Shown: positions 47,481-64,000 of the stretch, in pieces | Layout: each line of letters opens with the position of its first letter | Numbering within the stretch: position 1 is the first letter of the stretch | Assembly (NCBI GenBank): GCA_001692895.1 | Contig: KV748252.1 | Coordinates: forward strand, 558,001 to 622,000 | Length of the DNA stretch: 64,000 nt | Reading direction: 5' to 3' | Origin: Cenococcum geophilum 1.58 | Taxonomy: Eukaryota; Ascomycota; Dothideomycetes; Gloniales; Gloniaceae | The notes under the pieces: model-generated | Databases searched by the model: none | What the model was told of the DNA's origin: nothing | The model's input: only the letters and a program-made list of their open reading frames with translations | Translations under genes and position numbers: made by a program

Positions 47481-47750
47481 TGTATAATTACAGCACCTGT
47501 TGTACCAACCGCGTGCTTACGCGGTCGGTACACCAGGTACGCGTTTACGCGTTCAGTGCACCAACCACTCGCTTACGCGTCTAGTGCACTTATAAAGCAC
47601 TGACTAATCGGGGGGGGGTGCATCAGTATATAGACCACGTAGTCTGCTTTATACAATCGACAGTCACCATCATCCAAACGAGCATACAATACTATACGTA
47701 TTTCGTGCCCCTAGATCTGACTCACTCGTGCCATTAAATTGGTACGAACA
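47481..47750 (+). repeat. 5' LTR of the copia element
   Basis: 270 bp. The first third contains three degenerate copies of a GCTTACGCG(G/T)(T/C)(C/T)(G/A)GT(A/G)CACC-type unit (47510-47590), then a G9 run, and ends GGTACGAACA. Confidence 0.95.
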
Positions 47751-53214: not shown

Positions 53215-53371
53215 CGGAGTACCTACGGCCCGTAGGAAGGCCGTACGGCTTATTGTACGGCCTATTCTACGGACCATAAGCTATCAGATGGAAAATGGTG
53301 GAAAAGCTACGGTGGAACTTAGTGGACTCACGTGACCTGCGAATTCTGCAGGGTGGTTGAATTGACTACTA
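53215..53371 (+). other. copia 3' region before the pogo insertion
   Basis: Non-coding, with several (A)CGGACC/GGCCGTACGG palindromic motifs. It continues at 55472 after the pogo element (TTTTACGGACCGTAAGC near 55595). The two halves share CGTACGG(C/T)(T/C)-rich text. Confidence 0.6.
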
Positions 53372-55469
53372 CGTTTCCCCATTTGGCGATCGCCCCGGCT
53401 TGGCGACCGATTTTGAACAATCTAGCAACAACCTTTTGAGGCCTTGAAGCTATTAGAATAATCCTCAATAATTGTATTATAACTAAATCAATACGCGCGA
53501 AACGATTGGTGAGGTCTATAAGTCGCGATATCGTACAGGGAGGTTGATTTGCCTGCCCCTGCGCGTTGAGGCCAGGGTCAGCTCGGGCACCTCCGCCAGC
53601 GACTGAGTATCCTTAACATCATCCTCCTTAATAACAATAGGCTGCCTAGCCTTCCTCTGAGGCTTCTTAGTCTCTTTAATATCATTTTAAAGCTGACGAT
53701 TAGCTGCTTTAGCTATAGCTTTTTCCTCTTTAAGGGCCTTCTTTTGGGCCGCCTCCCTAAGCCGAAGCTCCTTCGCTGTTGCCTTTATGCGCTTACGTTC
53801 CTCTATTACCCTTTATTTTTCCTCCTTCTCAGCCTTCTTAATAGCCTGTTTTTCCTCCTTTTGAATGCGCTGAGCTTCTGCATCGCGTTCTTTTTGAGCT
53901 GCTCTCTCCCGAGCTTGTTAGACCTTGCTGGGGCTATAGAATAAGGCACCACCATCGTGATTTGTAGGTTGTTCAAACTTAATGGCCTTCCCTCGTTGAC
54001 GGCGTTTCTTCTCATTAATTAGGGCCTTTTTAAGGCCAGTATTCTCGCTTTGGAGCAGTACATTTTAAACAGTAAGGCTATAAATTGTATTAGAGAGGAC
54101 CTAAGCCCGTTAATTATGACAATCGTTAATAAGCTCGCGTAGGAGCTTCTGGATTTGTCGCCAATCATTTGCTGTTAATACTGACCTAGAACTCTCGCTA
54201 GAAGAAGGTCGATTGGCCTCTGGGTTAGAAAACCGTTTTAATACAACCTCCGGATTAAACGGGTGAAGTCCGCATGCTTTAAATCCCTGGAGGATATTAT
54301 TTTGGTTAAACGTCTCGGTATAAGCTTAATGAAATAGCCGGAAAAAGTTACGTTTTGTGAGAGCTAAGAAAGCTATTAATTCCTGCATAAAATCAACAAG
54401 CTGCTTAGAGTAGGCTTGAGAGAGAGGTCCAAATAAGCAGACATCTAAAGGCTAAAGAGAATGGGTAGAATGAGGCGGGTATATGGCCAGGAGGATCTTG
54501 TTCTCATCGCAATAGTTGATAAACTTTATTAAAATATGCGATCCATAGCTATCTAGTATTAAAAGCCTGTACGATCGCCGCGCCTTCTCTTTTGTATATT
54601 TATTAAAGCAGCTTTTGAGCCACTTAAGGCCAAGTTAATTATTCGTCCAGCCTAAAGGAGATAAGGCAAATAATGCCATATAAATCTTTGGGTCAAAGTC
54701 CTGCAGCCAGGTGTCTTAGATATTCCTAAAAACGGCTTAATAGATAAGGGAGGGAGGTAGGGAGCTACCGTCGGCGCAAATACAACAAATAGTCGTTATC
54801 CACTCGCAATTTCCGTCCTATATTACCTGCCGTAGTCCTCCTTCTTTATATCGCCTTCGAGAGAAGACCCGCTTTATTTTTAAGAGCACTCCAATAAGGA
54901 AGCCTTTTTCATCCATATTATACATCTAACGTTACTCTATATTATATTCCTTAATTTTACGCTCTATAAGCTTAAAATAGAGCTTGTATTTAAACGCAGA
55001 ATTAGCCCTCTTTCTCTCTTTATCCATGCCTGTTATCCACTTTAAAAGAAGGTCGATGGAGTTCCGTTCGATGAAGCGATCTACCCAGTTTTTTCCTACT
55101 TCTTTGCCGCTTATTTCTGCTGCAAAATTGTGTATTATGCACCTCGTAGGTAGTAGGCCTCGATTGCAAAGCTGTTTAATGTATATAATAAGCTCCTTCT
55201 CTTAATAGTTGTTAAGGATTCTATTGTTTTCATACTGGGCTGCACGGGTGCCCTGAATGCCCCGATGCCTCCGCGACAGCGTAACTCTGTTAATTCCATA
55301 TTTTGCAGCAACCTAAGTATAATTAGGAGTTTCTCCAGGCTTCAGGGATTTTAATGATTTAAGCGCGGCCTCCATAGGTTGTGTAGTTATTGAAAAAAGC
55401 GTTGTTGAATTTTGGCCGAATTCTGGTGTTGTGTGCGCCAAGCCGGGGCGATCGCCAAATGGGGAAACG
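53372..55469 (-). mobile_element. pogo/Fot1-type DNA transposon, 2098 bp
   Basis: Perfect 34-bp terminal inverted repeats (CGTTTCCCCATTTGGCGATC at both ends, continuing to GGCTTGGCG) are flanked by TA (53370-53371 and 55470-55471), as for the Tc1/mariner/pogo superfamily. One transposase gene fills it. It was inserted in the copia 3' region after that element arrived. Confidence 0.95.
53516..55375 (-). pseudogene. pogo/Fot1 transposase (DDE_1), interrupted by stops
   Basis: Start MEAALKSLKSLKPGETPNYT at 55375, then an N-terminal HTH (YTQVAAKYGINRVTLSRRHRG), a CENP-B-like second HTH, and the catalytic fold: MDEKGF (first Asp), LILDSYGSH (second Asp), then IYPPHSTHSLQPLDVCLF (third Asp). The C-terminus is Lys/Arg-rich coiled coil (LSAFKRRKNRLLRRL) and ends LPVRYRDL at 53516. 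About 620 codons, with roughly seven in-frame stops, each TAA/TAG at a likely Gln or Trp. The catalytic triad is still present, so only point damage keeps it inactive. Confidence 0.85.
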
Positions 55470-55471
55470 TA

Positions 55472-55709
55472 GTAATCACGATTTTCCATCCCCGGGATGG
55501 AAAATCGCTATTGGCTTGCTTAGCACTAGCGCCTTGGCGGCCCTTAAGATCTGACTTATGGCTCGTCTACTGCCCGTCAAAAGGCCGTACGGTTCATTTT
55601 ACGGACCGTAAGCAGAACTTACGTCTAGCTTGGGGCACCATTTGGAAGGCAGCCTAGACGGCACCTCGGGGAGATTCCCTATGTATTTTCCTTTGTATTT
55701 TATGGTTTT
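55472..55709 (+). other. copia 3' region between the two nested elements
   Basis: Includes a short hairpin (GATTTTCCATCCCCGGGATGGAAAATC, arms of 13 bp, 55481-55507) and GGCCGTACGG motifs. No frame. Confidence 0.5.
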
Positions 55710-55857
55710 ATCTATTATTCACACGCTTGCGGAGAAGAGGATTAATTAATCTAATTGGTGGGTACGGGCTCAAAGGCATTAATTGAGAATGGGTATATTC
55801 GCAAGGCCATTTGCAGGGGATTGCCCTGCCTTAACTAAACGTGATGCCCATAGACCC
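55710..55857 (-). repeat. Split direct repeat B2 of the YR retrotransposon
   Basis: 148 bp, beginning ATCTATTATTCACACG and ending GACCC. Matches 56039-56186 except at a few C/T and G/A positions. The outer edge (55710) is the element's 3' end. Confidence 0.9.
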
Positions 55858-55933
55858 GTGCGCAAGCATATCGCTACAGTATCTATTTATAAAGCCCAAA
55901 ATATACAACCAAAGAAAAAGGTGCGGGTGGGAG

Positions 55934-56040
55934 GGAAAGCAAGTAAGCAAGGCTCAATTTTGTAAATGTTGATAATATTGGTGTTGCTAAGATGCAGGGG
56001 TGCTGCTGCAGTGCTCGCTTAGCCACATAGACATATCCAT
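55934..56040 (-). repeat. Split direct repeat A2 of the YR retrotransposon
   Basis: 107 bp (GGAAAGCAAG...ATCCAT). Matches 60347-60453. It overlaps B1 by the 2 bp AT at 56039-56040. Confidence 0.9.
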
Positions 56041-56186
56041 CTATTATTCACACGCTTGCGGAGAAGAGGATTAATTAATCTAATTGGTGGGTACGGGCTT
56101 AAAGGCATTAATTGAGAATGGGTATATTCGCAAGGCCATTTGTAGGGGATTACCCTGCCTTAACTAAACGTGATGCCTATGGACCC
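56039..56186 (-). repeat. Split direct repeat B1 of the YR retrotransposon
   Basis: Second copy of the 148-bp repeat, joined directly to A2 and lying just past the recombinase frame. Confidence 0.9.
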
Positions 56187-56349
56187 AGAAGCGCAGCGCC
56201 CGTACCACACAAGGTAGAGTAGGGGGAAGAAAAAATAAAAAATAAAAAAGGGGGGGAAAGGAGAGATTCGAGTTAATGTATTAGAGTGCCAAAATAGGCA
56301 CTCCTGCACGCCGTTGTGCCTGAATACCTTCGCCCATTGCATCTAGGGC

Positions 56350-57309
56350 GAGTGACGATGAGAACGGTATTGGCGTTCCACGTTAGAAGTTTACACTTAG
56401 CCGGAATAGGTCTTTTAGGGATAATAAACAGTAAAGCTGGAACGCTTGTGAGGACCACCGGCCCAGTTGCTGTATTTAGCCGTCCGTGAAACCGTTGTCT
56501 CGAGCGTGTTGAGCAGCACCTTTCCGAAACGAGTGTCCGTTATAGAGCTTAAAGTAGAGGCCGAGAGCGGCGACTCTACACTTTAGCTCATTCCTAACCG
56601 CGTAGCTCGTAAAGGCCGATCTCTTAAAGCGAAAGAGAGGGGCGTTTCCGGGTTAGGGGTCATTTTTAAACAGGTGTTTTATAGCTCGAACTACGCATTT
56701 AGGTTGCCCTGAAGCGGCAATCATGATTAAAACTCCTTGGTAATTGACGTCCGTTTTACTACGCTTTAGACATAATATCATGTGGTCCTCTACCAGCGTT
56801 ATGTCGTTTCTGGTACATTTTATAGCAGAGAAGGCGTGGCTATCTTTCTAAGCCTTAGTGTAGGTAATCTCGCCTAGACAAAGGAATCCCGCAAAGGCCG
56901 TGGTGACGGCGGCGTTAAAGTTAAGATCCTTAACGGATTAGGCATTCGGGGTGACCAATTGGGCGAGGATGTCTTTGGTAATTAGCAATCTTTCAGCCGT
57001 AGTAGAGGGATTTATAGATGTTGCACCGTCCAGGATCCTCTTAATGATAGGATTATTGAAGACGGAGGTGTTATAATTAGCGTCAATATAGTGGGATCGA
57101 ATTGCGGAGACGTAGGCTCTAACTATAGTAGGCTTGATACGGCTTATTCCTAGACTAGCATTGCCGAAGATCCGTTGGGTAATCCATTCTCCCAGGTAGT
57201 AGAGGGGCGCTGGGTACTTTACCGCTCCGTAAAGGTTGCAGTAGCCCTCCCAACTCTTAATTGCGGGACGGTATAAATCTCTCGTTCCATCGGAGAGGCC
57301 GTACCACAA
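56350..57309 (-). pseudogene. Tyrosine recombinase of the YR retrotransposon
   Basis: The N-terminal core-binding part is an intact 123-codon piece (56938-57309: WYGLSDGTRDLYRPAIKSWE, then IVRAYVSAIRSHYIDA). The catalytic part follows: GFLCLGEITY, where R-x-G-E is expected and the first Arg reads Cys; GHSFRKGAAQHARDNG, the H-x-x-R motif intact; and LGRWSSQAFQLYC, with the W/H and the nucleophilic Tyr (codon at about 56431-56433) intact. A few stops interrupt it. This recombinase would integrate the circular cDNA by strand exchange. The Cys for Arg (CGT to TGT) would by itself disable catalysis. Confidence 0.75.
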
Positions 57310-58850
57310 TAGTTGGCCGAAGCATTCTGAGGGGGCTTTTACCTTAATCCAGAAATCAGGTAGGGGGTCTTTGAGAGGGACTAGGTCTCCTATTTCGGCG
57401 TTAGATTAAATGTAATGAAGAAGCGTATAGTAACGGTAAATCAGAAGTATCCTAATGCGGGCATAGTAATAACACCCTATCGCGATCAAAATGAGATAGA
57501 GTATTAGCTAGCCCGTTTTCTGCAGAGGAAACCCACTCCGCATAGAGCGTAATATCGTAGGCTGCGGCCAGTTGGAGGATCTCACGGAGCGGGTAATTAC
57601 CCGGTCCTTTCACCACCGTATTCTGGAATCCTAAGAGTACTACTGTGTTATTTGTATGGATACAGACTGAGCTGTGCTCCTACCGCGTTGCCCAGAGCTA
57701 AAATGAGGTTGTAATCGCTCGGACCTCCCGCTTATTAATTAGGGTAAGGCGGTGTTCTGCATTAGGGTAGCAGCTTAAAGAATCGTCTTAGGGTAGAGAT
57801 ACCGAATAGGGCGGCTATGTTGTCCCTCGAGAATCCTTAAGGAAGAAGAAGGCCCCGTAACCAAGAATCCCGGATGCGTCTAAGAAGAGATGGAATTATT
57901 TTCAATCCGTATCGTCAAAGAAGAGGATACCATTCAAAAGGGTAAGAGCATCCCTCCACCATAACAAGTCTTGGCGAAGTTCAGCTGTTAGCCGTTGGCG
58001 AGGATAACCACCTGCCTTTATAAAAGTGGAGATGAACTCCCAGATAGAGCGGTTGTATGAACGCCCAAGCCTGATTACCCGGGCGCTCCAAGCGAGTCTA
58101 CCAGCCAGTTTTTAACTCTGAACCAGCGTCAGGGATCTACCACTCAACGCTTTATTAATCTCCTCGATCGTAGTGGCCTGTTTTAAAGGAGAAAGACGCA
58201 GCTCAGACTTTAGAGTATCTATAATATAACCTAGGACTTCAGCCGTAGTGCCTTCGATATTCTTTGATTCGTTTCGTGGGATGCCTAATTCGTCGCTCAA
58301 TTGGTTATACACACTAAGCAATTGAGGGAGGATAGAAGCGTCAGAGAGTATAAAGATGAAGTCATCTAGATAGTGCTCTAAGGCGGCGTTCGGGATATGT
58401 TGGATAAGTATCCAGTGGAATCCCTCCGCAAAAAGATTGAATAAAAAGGGTGCAGTTCGAAGGCCGAATGAGAGGTAACGTTTGAAATACACCACACCCT
58501 TCCAGGAGAACCCTATAAGGCGTTGAGCTTCAATGGAAAGTGGGATGTTCCGAAAGGCGTCCTTGATGTCCCTCTTAACAATTATGTAACTACGGCCTGT
58601 ACGTATAACGTGTTGGAGAACCTAATCGACTGTTAAATATTATAGTGTGGCGAATGCTATAGGGATTGAGTCGTTGACAGATCGGCCAGATGGTGAGGAT
58701 AAGTTGTGAATACGGCGCCATCCCCTATCCGCTTTAGGTACCAAACCTAGCGGCGAGGACATAACGGGAGACGTTGCCATTGCAATCCTGCCTATATCTA
58801 GATCGGCGTTGATCTTCTCTGAGATTAGGACCATATTTGCGGCTATCAAG
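57310..58850 (-). pseudogene. RT and RNase H of the YR retrotransposon
   Basis: RT: 58640-58849 contains SPLGLVPKADRGWRRIHNLS, the fingers motif of DIRS RTs. It continues with DIKDAFRNIPLS and GVVYFKRYLSFGLRTAPFLF, and the catalytic box is HYLDDFIFIL (58112-58495). RNase H follows with LFLDASGILGYGAFF, CIHTNNTVVLLGFQN and NGLANTLSHFDRD down to about 57440. No methyltransferase-like domain was seen between RNase H and the recombinase. Several TAA/TAG codons interrupt it. Confidence 0.8.
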
Positions 58851-58861
58851 GCTTGGTTCTT

Positions 58862-60280
58862 CTAGGAGAGGAGCTCAATTTCTAGGTCTACCCCAATCTG
58901 GCATCCAAACTTTAAGATACCGATAATGTTACGTTGGAGGTTGCCGGGGTACAGGGATAGATAACGCCCCCACGCTTGAATAATTAAGGGGGAGGGAGAG
59001 TCCTGTAGAGGAGAGGAGGGCAGGAAGACTGGAAATGATGGTATAGTATTCGGCCTACCCGTACTGTAAGGGTAGAGCACGGTTTCGGCGGAGTGTAGGT
59101 ATAGCTTGATGAAATCCTCTTCCTCCTCTTCCTTTTCCTTATTGACACTTTCCTCTAGTAATTGCTACTTGCAATTCCTCGCAGTATACGGGCCACCGCA
59201 CTTGCTGCAGGTATGCGGGAACTTGCAATCCTTACCCAAGTCACACTTCCCTCTATTAAAGCTGTAACAGGTCCTTAAGATATCGGTGCTTACTCGCGCG
59301 CGTTTTGAGATAGATGCGGATTTATAAGTACTGGGATTGCAATAGATATCCAGAAAGTTACTAAAGATCTTCTAGTTAGCTGGCTCTAACTGGTTCTTTT
59401 AAATAACCATAGAGTGGTGCTCCAAGGCCATAGTCATCAAGGGAGCAATTTAGTAGGTGGCAGATAGCCAGATAACTTGATTGCAGAAGGCAAGCATTTA
59501 GGGAATAAGATCTACCGAAAGATTCTTACACATAACGATCAAAATCATTATATAGTTAAGGAAGCCCTCTACCCACACTTCGACGGACGGGTAGTCCTTT
59601 ATCGTCCCTTCTTTCGGTCTCATAGAAAGGACGCTGTTAACGATAAGGATATCATTCTAAGGCTTAGACCAGAGCTAGTGTATCCGGAGGCGAGAGAGGT
59701 TATTAGGCAAGAAAGTACCCTGAAATACCTTAAGTATCTCTTTATTCGGGACGCCAGGGAGGAGGGTATTTAGGATATTGGCTGTAGATGGGAGCAACTC
59801 ACCCGGTTCATTAATTGGGGTTAAGGATGACACTGCCGTAGCTGATCTCGCTGTTACCGTAGCGAGGCTCAATGTATGGAGTTCAGTCGCCCGATCTTCC
59901 TGTTCTTTTTAAACGCGTAGCATTTCGGTACGGTCCTCCTGTTCCTAAAGGAGTCTTATTTTCCAGTCGGTTGCCTGGTCCTCAACCTCCTTTACCTGAG
60001 CTCTTCTAATCCTTAGGTCCTCCTCGTGTAGTTGCTGGAGCCGTTCTTTGGCTTTTTCAGCGGCTAAAGTCTCGCGTTAAGCCGCGGAGAGAGGCGCCAT
60101 TATGGAGGATGGAGACTATAACGCCGGCGTATCGCCTGAAGGTGTAGGGGAAGGTGAGGGAGACTGGTAGGTAACCTCTGAGGAGTTTAGCTCGTCGAGT
60201 GTGTTGTTGTTGGTCGAGTTTTCGAGGTTTTCACGGACGATTCGCGAAGGTTTAGACGAGCGTATAGGTTGTTGAGTCAT
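58862..60280 (-). pseudogene. Gag-like protein of the YR retrotransposon
   Basis: Start MTQQPIRSSKPSRI at 60280, then a Ser/Pro-rich stretch, a charged coiled coil (AAEKAKERLQQLHEEDL), and near 59180-59290 a Cys/His cluster CYSFNRGKCDLGKDCKFPHT followed by CSKCGGPY. This C-x-F-N-x-G-x-C...C...H plus second-finger pattern is typical of DIRS-type Gag proteins. The part 58862-59080 (PYSTGRPNTIPSF) leads into the RT. Broken by stops. A 98-codon plus-strand frame at 59477-59773 is a shadow of this region. Confidence 0.65.
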
Positions 60281-60346
60281 CAACAGCAACAATCAATTAT
60301 TAGAAATTGAGTAAATAAGGCATTGGCTCTCGAATGAGACTAATAT

Positions 60347-60453
60347 GGAAAGCAAGCAAGCAAGGCTCAATTTTGTGAATGTTGATGATGTTGGTGTTGC
60401 TGAGATGCAGGGGTGCTGCTGCAGTGCTCGCTTAGCCACATAGACATGTCCAT
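60347..60453 (-). repeat. Split direct repeat A1 of the YR retrotransposon
   Basis: 107-bp repeat at the element's 5' end, upstream of the gag start at 60280. It retains G/C where A2 has A/T at several positions, so A2 is the more RIPped copy. Confidence 0.9.
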
Positions 60454-60507: not shown

Positions 60508-60778
60508 TGTATAATTACAGCACCTGTTGTACCAACCGCGTGCTTACGCGGTCGGTACACCAGGTACGCGTTTACGCGTTCAGTGCACCAACCACTCGCT
60601 TACGCGTCTGGTGCACTTATGAAGCACTGACTAATTAGGGGGGGGGTGCATCAGTATATAGACCACGTAGTCTGCTTCATACAATCGACAGTCACCATCA
60701 TCCAAACGAGCATACAATACTATACGTATTTCGTGCCCCTGGATCTGACTCACTTGTGCCATTAAATTGGTACGAACA
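60508..60778 (+). repeat. 3' LTR of the copia element
   Basis: 271 bp, differing from the 5' LTR at only a few positions (A/G, T/C) and one indel in the poly-G run. Followed by the GGGAC duplication. Confidence 0.95.
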
Positions 60779-61950
60779 GGGACGAATTAGCAGCTAGTTC
60801 TAGCTCTAGTTCGAGCTCTAAAAACTCTATTATAAAGCACTTTTATAGCTAAAAACATAGCTATTATCTCTAGCTTCGAGAGTTTAGCAACGAATTTAAA
60901 ACTAGAAAATAGAGGGAATCTCTTTAAATTGGTAAAAACTGTAGTCTTTACCTATTTTTGCATTCTTTTCTATCTTGAGAGGTAGTAAGAAAGAAGCTGT
61001 ATAAGAATATCTAAGCCTAGTAGAAAATCTATAAAAATCCCTAATGTGGGACTTAGTAAATATATACTATATAAATAGTTTTAAAGACAATAAATTAAAT
61101 ATAGTAGCCATCTATAAAATAGGAGAGAGAAATATGATTAAATATATAATAAACTATAATTTAGAACCCCATATAGGAGTTATAAATATAGAGCTTTATA
61201 TAGTCTATAGGGCCCTAAAATACCTAAAATAATATAGACTAGAAGAGAAATAGGCTTATATTTTTATAGATAGCTAGGCGGCTATTAAAAGATTATAGCT
61301 TTATTCTCTTATAGGGGGACAAGAACTAGTCTTTAAAATTACGTAAAATTGCTCTTATTTAGCTAGTAAAAATATTTCTATTAACTTCTATTAAGTTCCT
61401 AGCCACTTAAGAATGTATAGAAATAAATAGTAGATAAGCTAGCTAAAAAAGGCCTTTTAAAAAAATCTTCTTATACTTCTTTAGCCTATATAAGGAGAGT
61501 AGTAAGAGAAAAGATACTAAAATAGTAAAATATATAATTGGAAATAGAAGGGAAATAAAGGAAAATACTATACTAGAATCTATAAAGGAAGCTATTCCTT
61601 TTCTCTTAAAGCTCCTAAGAATAGATATCCTAAAAAGTAAAAAAAAAGCTACTTTAAATCCCTCTCTAAAATAATAGAGAAGGATAAAGAAAGAAGATGC
61701 TTTAGGGAATATAGCGCTATATAAACCCTAAGGTACTTATTACTAAAATGCAACTTATATAGAGGAGAGAGAAAAGAGATGTAAAGGTATCTAGGTTCTT
61801 CTCTCTCTTTAAAAAAGCTATTTTATATAAAGAAAAGAAAGGAGGCACTTTTTTAATTTTTAGATTAGATAGGAATAGCCACTTAAAAGTAGCTAATAGC
61901 AGTAAGATCTTTAAAAGGGGGCAACTTCTACTAGGCTCCCAGTAAATAGA
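60779..61950 (+). pseudogene. RIPped Tad-like LINE: RNase H domain and ORF2 tail
   Basis: Open piece 61044-61232 ends GVINIELYIVYRALKYLK, then FIDSQAAIKRLQLYS and YQVPSHLRMYRNK.VDKLAKKG. These are the acidic and His positions of the RNase H found after the RT in Tad-type LINEs. Further on, YLGSSLFKKAILYKEKKGG resembles the C-terminal end of such ORF2 proteins. The RT itself is not in the window. Stops and AT-richness indicate RIP. Confidence 0.6.
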
Positions 61951-62530: not shown

Positions 62531-64000
62531 CTAATCCAAAAATACCGGAATCCCATACACTACCGCCGCTGCCCCGTTCAAATATTTCAACACACACGCC
62601 TCCCTAGCCCCTCTAATAGCCTCATCGAGCCCAGCACCCCTCCTCCTCACCCCCAGCGCCGCCCCCCCAGCAGCCTCAAAAGCCCCCTCACCCTTTCTCC
62701 CCCTCCTAGCCATCCCGGCCCCCCTCGCACTCTCCACCTCCGCAACCCGCGCCAGAACCCTGCCCTTGCCCTTGCCCTTCCCCTTCTCACGCTTCTCCTC
62801 CTTCCCCGCCTTTCTCCCGTCGCCGGCAGGAGTCTCAGGCCACAGCCCCCAAATCTCCCCCGCGCGCACCGCAAAGCGGTCACAGTCCTTATCCGTCACA
62901 TCCCACAGCATGCCCACGACGGCCGGCGCGCCCGCGGCCAAGTACGCCGTCAGCATGCCCGAGGGCTCGAAGACGCCGTGCTCGGCCACCAGCGCCGAGG
63001 AGCAGCCAAATAAGAACGACGTCGCGCAGCTCGGTTTCCGCTCTGGAGGCACGGACGAGGTAGGCTCTTCAGCGGAAGAGGGCGAGGAAGGGAGAGGGAC
63101 GCGCTCGTGGAGTTTCTTCACAACCCTCGAGCGGATGTACTGTGCGCCACTTCCGTGCCCGAAGTAGAGCAGCAAGTCCTTTTCGTGCAGCGCGGCTTCG
63201 AACTCTTTCTCGCTTGGGCCGTGGGCGATGATATGGGTCCAGTCGCCTTCCATGGCGTCTAGGTGTGGGCGAAGCGTCCTCTGTGTGTGTGTCAAATCAC
63301 CCGACGGGTTTAGGATGCTCGTCCCGCCGGCGCTTGCAGAGATGTGATGTCCTGGCTCCGCGTCCTTATCTGTGACGTGGAGGGGAGGCCTGGCAGTAAC
63401 AAGACGTTCCCGTAGTGCGGCTAATGAAGGAAGGCGAGAGATAGACAGAGGCTGGAGGCAGGGGAGGGATTCCCATGGGAAGGCGTGGAGGTCTTTGTCA
63501 AGGATAAGAATCGTGTGGGTTGGCTTTGTTGAGATGTTTTGGGATGCTGAGTGATAGGCGCGGAGGGCATCCAGTGTTTCAACAACGACCTGGTTGAGTT
63601 AGTAAGATAATTTATTTGGGATCATGGGTGTTTGAGAAGAGTATGTGAGGTGTCTTACAGAATCGAAGTCAATTTCGTCGTATGCATTCCGCTCGCCGCT
63701 AAATTGCAGAATGTCTACGACAAAATAGACCAAGTCCATCAATGGCTCATCCAGGTCGAGTTCTTCATTCATTGCATCTCCCAGACCAATGAATAACTCC
63801 AGGATTCTCGGTTCCAGGTTAACTTTTTTCTGCTGCCCTCGACCCTGACGAGAGGGGAGATGCCTGTTTAAAATATTCTGGAACGATTTTTGGAAACGGG
63901 CTAAGAGATTGGGCTGTCGAACATGCTGAGAAAATATTCCTCTAAAACCCCCGAGCCAAATGTTCTCAATGTTGACTAGTAGATCTCGAAGTCGGTTGTC
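62531..64000 (-). CDS. Separase (peptidase C50) C-terminal catalytic part, 5' end outside window
   Basis: Separase is the caspase-fold cysteine protease that cleaves cohesin kleisin at anaphase. The two exons visible are 63659-64000 (partial) and 62531-63589, joined by a 69-bp intron (63590-63658) with donor GTAAGA, a CTAAC branch site and acceptor CAG, phase 0. The upstream exon reads LRDLLVNIENIWLGGFRGIF and LDLDEPLMDLVYFVVD. The next reads HTILILDKDLHAFPWESLP, then the catalytic His in LLLYFGHGSGAQYIRS (codon 63155-63157) and the catalytic Cys in FLFGCSSALVAEHGVFEP (codon 63002-63004), then GMLWDVTDKDCDRF. Both catalytic residues are present. A Lys/Gly/Arg-rich insertion (GKEEKREKGKGKGKG) precedes the last helix (ACVLKYLNGAAAVVYGIPVFL). 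About 466 residues are visible. Nuclear at mitosis. The gene continues beyond 64000. Confidence 0.95.

What the first reader, a model, noticed from the sequence alone, without database searches (positions are those of the whole stretch)
55710..60453. Tyrosine-recombinase retrotransposon with split direct repeats, in a filamentous ascomycete
Seen directly: RT with a YLDDF box, RNase H and tyrosine-recombinase motifs (HSFRKG, QLY) on one strand, and two repeat pairs (107 bp and 148 bp) in the order A1-ORFs-B1-A2-B2. Established: PAT, Ngaro and related YR elements have this architecture, while DIRS1 itself has inverted termini. Gag with a CxFNxGxC...CxxC cluster also fits. I regard such elements as uncommon in Pezizomycotina, so this may be a lineage not yet described; that rarity is from memory and must be checked. 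RT/RH with no methyltransferase domain and PAT-type repeats would be a combination worth placing.
Basis: partly seen in the sequence, partly recalled or inferred. Interest (0 to 1): 0.88.

Follow-up and report, generated by a model that had tools for sequence, protein, structure and literature searches.

The report
Ngaro jumping gene crippled by RIP
This is one of many copies of a known kind of jumping gene (Ngaro, a retrotransposon that inserts itself with a tyrosine recombinase) in a filamentous ascomycete, disabled by the fungus's own mutation defence; it is a clear example of a kind that is thinly documented in these fungi, not a new kind of element.

Summary
Window 55710-60453 is a 4,744-bp retrotransposon coded on the minus strand (gag, RT-RNase H, tyrosine recombinase) with split direct repeats A1-ORFs-B1-A2-B2 (107 and 148 bp). 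Borders are proven: 26 of 26 fetched full-length copies end at the same positions, and uninserted relatives of the target were found for 9 of 26, the window copy included, plus one weak case. Insertion neither duplicates nor deletes target DNA; the two sides share one T at a DTNTA-like target. No methyltransferase was found and there is no room for one. [quoted passage not shown] Ngaro was nearly unknown in Ascomycota in 2013, but a complete family was reported in Zymoseptoria in 2015. Of 1,568 variable columns among the 26 copies, 1,554 are pure transitions: a recent burst, then RIP; all 26 carry at least 21 stops in gag-pol. A second family (43-45% protein identity) has the same layout; 331-bp solos and one 4,415-bp form also occur. 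New member of a known kind. RT/YR trees could not be built.

The parts
55710..60453 (-). whole element, 4,744 bp counting the variable target base 55710 and the shared T at both ends
   Evidence: 26 of 26 fetched copies share these ends; empty sites
60347..60453 (-). A1, 5' terminal repeat, 107 bp
59192..60280 (-). gag region (first ATG at 60280) with a Cys/His cluster at 59192-59269 that resembles CCCH and CxxC fingers; broken by stops
   Evidence: Pfam zf-CCCH only E=0.057, below its cut-off
58112..58621 (-). reverse transcriptase, open 169-aa piece with YLDDF
   Evidence: RVT_1 E=1.2e-13
57485..57892 (-). RNase H-like region (HLFLDASG ... AEH ... HTNN ... SAENGLANTLSHFD)
   Evidence: motifs only; no Pfam match
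56428..57405 (-). tyrosine recombinase (Lys at 56749-56769, HxxR at 56518-56535, GRW and Tyr at 56428-56466); the first catalytic Arg position reads Cys in this copy
56039..56186 (-). B1, internal repeat, 148 bp
55934..56040 (-). A2, internal repeat, 107 bp; shares AT at 56039-56040 with B1
55858..55933 (-). 76-bp spacer between A2 and B2
55710..55857 (-). B2, 3' terminal repeat, 148 bp
47481..47750 (.). LTR of the host LTR retrotransposon, GGGAC just outside
60508..60778 (.). other LTR of the host LTR retrotransposon, GGGAC just outside

Best explanation
A Ngaro-type tyrosine-recombinase retrotransposon, dead in this copy. Likely cycle: element RNA is copied by its RT/RNase H; the internal B1|A2 junction serves as a template copy of the joined ends, so that a closed circle with a B2|A1 junction forms (published model for split-repeat elements, inferred here). 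The tyrosine recombinase then recombines that junction with a short AT-rich, DTNTA-like target, crossing over at one shared T, so that no target base is duplicated or lost (product shown here by empty sites; the enzyme's part is inferred). The family spread recently from near-identical copies and was then hypermutated by RIP (shown by the mutation spectrum).
For: Split direct repeats in coding order A1-ORFs-B1-A2-B2. RT by Pfam; recombinase motifs and Cre-like profile hits. No methyltransferase or DDE integrase family in six frames, and only 79 bp between the last RNase H motif and the recombinase piece. Same ends in 26 of 26 copies. Empty sites for 9 of 26 copies. Target preference over 34 sites: A before the T 22/34, T at +2 25/34, A at +3 28/34. 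Same architecture in a second family, L055, 45% identical in RT-RH and 43% in YR. RIP: 1,554 of 1,568 variable columns pure transitions; C before A variable in 304 of 305 columns.
Against: Profile support for the recombinase is weak and for RNase H absent. No RT or YR tree could be made. Two of 26 copies (L002, L020) have words of 13 and 11 nt repeated on both sides, and the mean shared-word length (5.54) exceeds all 200 shuffles (maximum 5.42); they lie in tandem-like sequence but no empty site was found for them. The empty sites are related repeat copies, not alleles of the same locus. No circle, RNA or activity was observed.
Confidence: 0.92

Rival explanations
1. A PAT-like (DIRS-group) element that lost its methyltransferase and so only looks like Ngaro.
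For: Such a loss is reported for a Caenorhabditis briggsae lineage (PMC4157794, passages), and a Gag zinc finger marks Pat1 among PAT elements (section 7); this gag has a Cys/His cluster.
Against: A second family at 43-45% protein identity has the same layout with RVT_1 as its only coding-strand Pfam match; the internal repeats lie downstream of the recombinase, as in Ngaro.
Confidence: 0.06
2. An LTR retrotransposon with rearranged repeats.
For: It lies inside an LTR retrotransposon, so confusion is possible.
Against: No DDE integrase family in six frames; same unusual ends in 26 of 26 copies; conservative insertion at 9 empty sites.
Confidence: 0.01
3. Sub-question, rival to the novel case: the 331-bp solos and the 4,415-bp form arose in place by ordinary homologous recombination between A1 and A2, or B1 and B2.
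For: Solo AB repeats of Ngaro in Cafeteria were explained so (PMC8547959 section 11). The ends fit exactly: 7 of 7 fetched solos and the short form.
Against: Repeats 329 bp apart should recombine more often than repeats 4.4 kb apart, yet in the listed exact matches on contigs C1-C22 I count 6 solos, 1 short form and 44 junction-bearing copies. Small numbers; the lists stop at about 100 places and show only exact matches.
Confidence: 0.6
4. The stops are recoded or ordinary decay, not RIP.
For: Stops in gag-pol are nearly all TAA and TAG (704 TAA, 700 TAG, 14 TGA over 26 copies).
Against: Changes are C-to-T and G-to-A over the whole element, repeats included, with a CpA bias; ordinary decay would bring more transversions and indels (14 columns and 4 gap positions here, one column being the target base).
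Confidence: 0.01

Closest known systems
Ngaro retrotransposons of fungi (PMC3783388; parts 1-4 of 5 of the text read)
   Same: RT, RNase H and YR without methyltransferase; A-pol-B-A-B repeats; YR in the same or another frame
   Different: That survey of 177 genomes found Ngaro in Basidiomycota and one truncated copy, without repeats, in Ascomycota; here full-length copies with repeats, at least 113 with the A2|B1 junction
Ngaro (RYN) family of Zymoseptoria tritici (PMC4502367; passages)
   Same: complete tyrosine-recombinase retrotransposon of the Ngaro superfamily in an ascomycete
   Different: one family there; at least two families here by RT identity. Sequences could not be compared
Ngaro of Cafeteria burkhardae (PMC8547959; section 11)
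   Same: A1-[ORFs]-B1A2B2, gag/RT-RH/YR, solo AB repeats
   Different: a protist; several types prefer virophage DNA; 80 elements over four strains
PAT, DIRS1, VIPER (PMC4157794 section 7; PMC6681497 passages)
   Same: RT plus YR; PAT and VIPER also have split direct repeats
   Different: PAT and DIRS1 carry a methyltransferase; DIRS1 has inverted repeats; VIPER is known from trypanosomatids

Membership tests
Ngaro | reverse transcriptase | tested here: met
   RVT_1 E=1.2e-13
Ngaro | RNase H next to RT | tested here: inconclusive
   motifs in the right place; no Pfam match
Ngaro | tyrosine recombinase on the same strand | tested here: met
   Lys, HxxR and Tyr motifs (motif roles recalled), Cre/Tre in 17 of 18 PDB profile hits though weak, conservative insertion
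Ngaro | no methyltransferase | tested here: met
   none in six frames (the same scan also missed YR, so it is not very sensitive), and no room: 79 bp between RNase H motif and YR piece, about 240 bp between YR and B1
Ngaro | split direct repeats A1-ORFs-B1-A2-B2, internal pair downstream of YR | tested here: met
   second family the same
Ngaro | RT/YR clade membership | not testable with these tools
   protein database off; no named references; viral scans empty
PAT-like | methyltransferase domain | tested here: not met
   and lack of room
DIRS1-like | inverted terminal repeats with internal complementary region | tested here: not met
   only one inverted pair found, 30 nt at 77%, one arm outside the element
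VIPER-like | RT/RH and YR clade of trypanosomatids | not testable with these tools
   no reference sequences
Crypton | tyrosine recombinase without reverse transcriptase | tested here: not met
   RVT_1 present
LTR retrotransposon | DDE integrase and target duplication | tested here: not met
   empty sites; no abutting duplication of 6 nt or more in 26 copies

The most novel reading that the evidence does not exclude
A circular Ngaro DNA carries the B|A site twice (B2|A1 and B1|A2). The element's own recombinase could therefore split the circle into a 329-bp A-B circle and a 4.4-kb A-ORFs-B circle, each able to integrate at DTNTA-like sites; the 331-bp solos and the 4,415-bp form would then be mobile products, not decay products. 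The solos, several of them scarcely mutated, would also be a natural test of the length below which RIP in this fungus overlooks a repeat.
Probability: 0.2. Interest if true: 0.55.

Novelty: new member of a known kind. Interest (0 to 1): 0.36.

Why it matters
It documents a recent, high-copy Ngaro burst (113 places with the A2|B1 junction) in a filamentous ascomycete, where the 2013 survey of 177 fungal genomes found one truncated copy, and it gives clean evidence of how such an element integrates: exact borders, empty sites, one shared T. Because the copies differ almost only by RIP-type changes, the family is a good natural record of RIP acting on one burst. The genome size (177.19 Mb) is close to that published for Cenococcum geophilum (177.57 Mb, RIP-like 'Probably', PMC5445492 passages; 178 Mb and 81% repeats, PMC5023957 passages). 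The host was not verified. If it is that species, whose genome paper infers possible sexual reproduction from recombination and mating genes, RIP on so young a family would bear on that question, since RIP is tied to the sexual cycle (recalled).

Tried and rejected
LTR retrotransposon or rearranged repeats: rejected by shared borders in 26 of 26 copies and by empty sites. A and B as an unrelated dispersed repeat: not supported; the extra B places that I followed on C1-C22 are six solos, one short form, one copy split by 7 kb (C10:1350030/1357135) and one with a mutated junction (C2:2300060). Not resolved: the 24-nt A-end pattern gave 330 places with up to one mismatch, well over twice the junction count of 113; one-mismatch places were not listed, so some may belong to related families. 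The base before the shared T being element-derived: rejected, since empty sites carry the same A, T or G.

Dead ends: protein database search not sent; viral-contig scans with the RT/RH and YR alignments gave 73 and 77 pattern matches and no confirmed relative; the single-sequence fold of the recombinase was unusable (mean pLDDT 33.7), so no fold search was made; the RT/RH profile found nothing in the PDB at E<=0.01 and the single YR sequence only an unrelated chain at E=0.52; NCBIfam nothing; PHROGs weak (integrase phrog_1, E=0.045).

Ascertainment: the 26 copies are the scored best of 146 candidates. The 7 fetched solos were picked from the best 40 of 239 and 40 of 233 hits, which favours unmutated ones; of the 6 solos in the RIP-tolerant lists on C1-C22, 2 (C3:279437, C5:1681309) show several transitions at their ends. 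In the comparison of solos with each other 6 of the 7 were used; L050 dropped out of the script's anchor search.
Full report
What is there. Window 55710-60453 holds a 4,744-bp element coded on the minus strand. In coding orientation the order is A1, gag, RT-RNase H, tyrosine recombinase, B1, A2, 76 bp, B2. B1 and A2 overlap by the dinucleotide AT. Of 200 random sequences with the element's dinucleotide transitions none held an exact direct repeat over 15 bp, against 61 observed. Gag and RT-RNase H share one frame (ATG at 60280, last RNase H motif at 57485); the recombinase is in another frame.

Proteins. The 169-aa open piece of RT matches RVT_1 at 1.2e-13. RNase H is called from motifs alone. 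The recombinase is weak in Pfam (0.081); its two-row profile with a second family of the same genome hits Cre or Tre in 17 of 18 PDB sequences at E<=5, best 0.037, with HSFRKG and GRW over Cre's HSAR and GGW, though the best aligned stretch scores only 8 bits. The position of the first catalytic arginine is Tyr in 22, Cys in 3 (the window copy among them) and Arg in 1 of 26 copies. Six-frame Pfam found RVT_1 and two sub-threshold matches, no methyltransferase, DDE integrase or protease. That scan also missed the recombinase, so the stronger argument is space: 79 bp lie between the last RNase H motif and the recombinase piece.

Copies and borders. The genome has 177.19 Mb in 162 contigs. The first search scored 26 of 146 candidates: the window and 25 others nearly full length at 88-91%. 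All 26 have the same ends, allowing for C/T and G/A changes (where the alignment stopped a few bases short the end was extrapolated and then read). RIP-tolerant patterns with up to one mismatch found 113 places for the A2|B1 junction, 237 for the B start and 330 for the A end, with 0 in each reversed control. RT-piece hits (150 scored of 292) fall into two groups, at least 70% and at most 52% identity, so there are other families; 149 of the 150 hold stops, the window's piece being the one without. The recombinase piece gives the same split (150 scored of 277).

Integration. For 9 of the 26 copies an uninserted relative of the target was found among the fetched flanks or in the window, for a tenth (L022) only a weak one at 67%. 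At these sites the target reads straight through with one base X and one T where the element sits, apart from single transitions in some relatives; X is A, T or G in target and insertion alike. So insertion is conservative and the sides share one T. Over 34 sites (26 full copies, 7 solos, 1 short form) the target prefers A before the T (22/34, p=1.6e-4), T at +2 (25/34, p=1.8e-6) and A at +3 (28/34, p=4.6e-9; uncorrected). The donor junction read from B1|A2 is AT-CTA, so the target resembles it. Against the reading: L002 and L020 have words of 13 and 11 nt on both sides, and the mean shared word exceeds all 200 shuffles; both flanks look locally tandem and no empty site was found for them.

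The window insertion. It lies 54 bp before the 3' LTR of an LTR retrotransposon (LTRs 47481-47750 and 60508-60778, 97.4%, GGGAC outside both). About 230 bp to the left lies a 2.1-kb transposon with 43-bp inverted ends and a Tc5-type DNA-binding domain, absent at the same place in L003's flank.

Age and death. The 26 copies align over 4,744 columns with four gap positions in all. Of 1,568 variable columns 1,554 are pure transitions; 14 hold a transversion allele, one of them the target base. C before A is variable in 304 of 305 columns, before G in 168 of 182, before T in 160 of 328, before C in 73 of 199: RIP. At the 1,479 columns with only C/T or only A/G the window copy has T or A at 126, the others at 409 to 593. 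All 26 copies have at least 21 stops in the gag-pol frame. The family spread recently and was then disabled; I did not convert this to years.

Second family and minor forms. L055 (RT piece 49%; 45% over RT-RH, 43% over YR) has 121-bp A repeats and 159-bp B repeats in the same A1-ORFs-B1/A2-B2 order, with gag, RT and YR in one frame; RVT_1, below its cut-off, is its only Pfam match on the coding strand. Seven 331-bp solos with exact ends were fetched and two more are seen in the lists (C3:279437, C5:1681309). One 4,415-bp copy lacks exactly one repeat unit (C10:2714690-2719104). Six compared solos differ from each other at 0-13 positions, while the same 331 bp of the 26 full copies differ from one solo at 12-35; the fetched solos were chosen among the best-scoring hits, so this contrast is biased. 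Solo AB repeats are already known from Cafeteria Ngaro (PMC8547959 section 11).

Comparison. Ngaro is defined by RT/RH and YR without methyltransferase and by split direct repeats whose internal pair follows YR (PMC4157794 section 7; PMC3783388 part 1). The features that could be tested are met, RNase H by motif only; the tree could not be built. PMC3783388 found one truncated Ngaro in Ascomycota among 177 fungal genomes. PMC4502367 reported a complete Ngaro family in Z. tritici (passages). Repeat tables list Ngaro in three of four Sporothrix genomes, O. sinensis and Hortaea. Searches for Ngaro with Ascomycota, Dothideomycetes, RIP and Cenococcum and for tyrosine recombinase with Cenococcum listed no title about this family in the open library; not every listed paper was opened, and subscription papers and Repbase were not searched. 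Hence a new member of a known kind.

Noticed in passing
window 53363-55478: A 2.1-kb DNA transposon with 43-bp inverted ends (97.7%) and a Tc5-type DNA-binding domain (PF03221, E=8.7e-08), nested in the same LTR retrotransposon; its ORF is broken.
   Followed up: partly
window 62531-63598 (-): A 355-aa open frame matching separase (Peptidase_C50, E=3e-74), 1.75 kb from the LTR retrotransposon: a core cell-cycle gene at the edge of a nested-transposon block.
   Followed up: no
G000 C82:245160 and C82:245489: Two A2|B1 junctions 329 bp apart, as if one copy had an extra A-B repeat unit.
   Followed up: no
L055 2885-2994: A short tandem array of about 22-bp units between RNase H and the recombinase of the second family, in frame with both.
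   Followed up: no
L001-L026, terminal repeats: In the pattern lists the outer A1 and B2 ends often look less mutated than the internal A2 and B1, as if RIP faded towards the element's ends; not quantified.
   Followed up: no
window 61200-61460 (+): Remnant of what looks like a LINE-type RNase H in heavily mutated DNA to the right of the LTR retrotransposon; judged by eye from the sequence, not searched.
   Followed up: no
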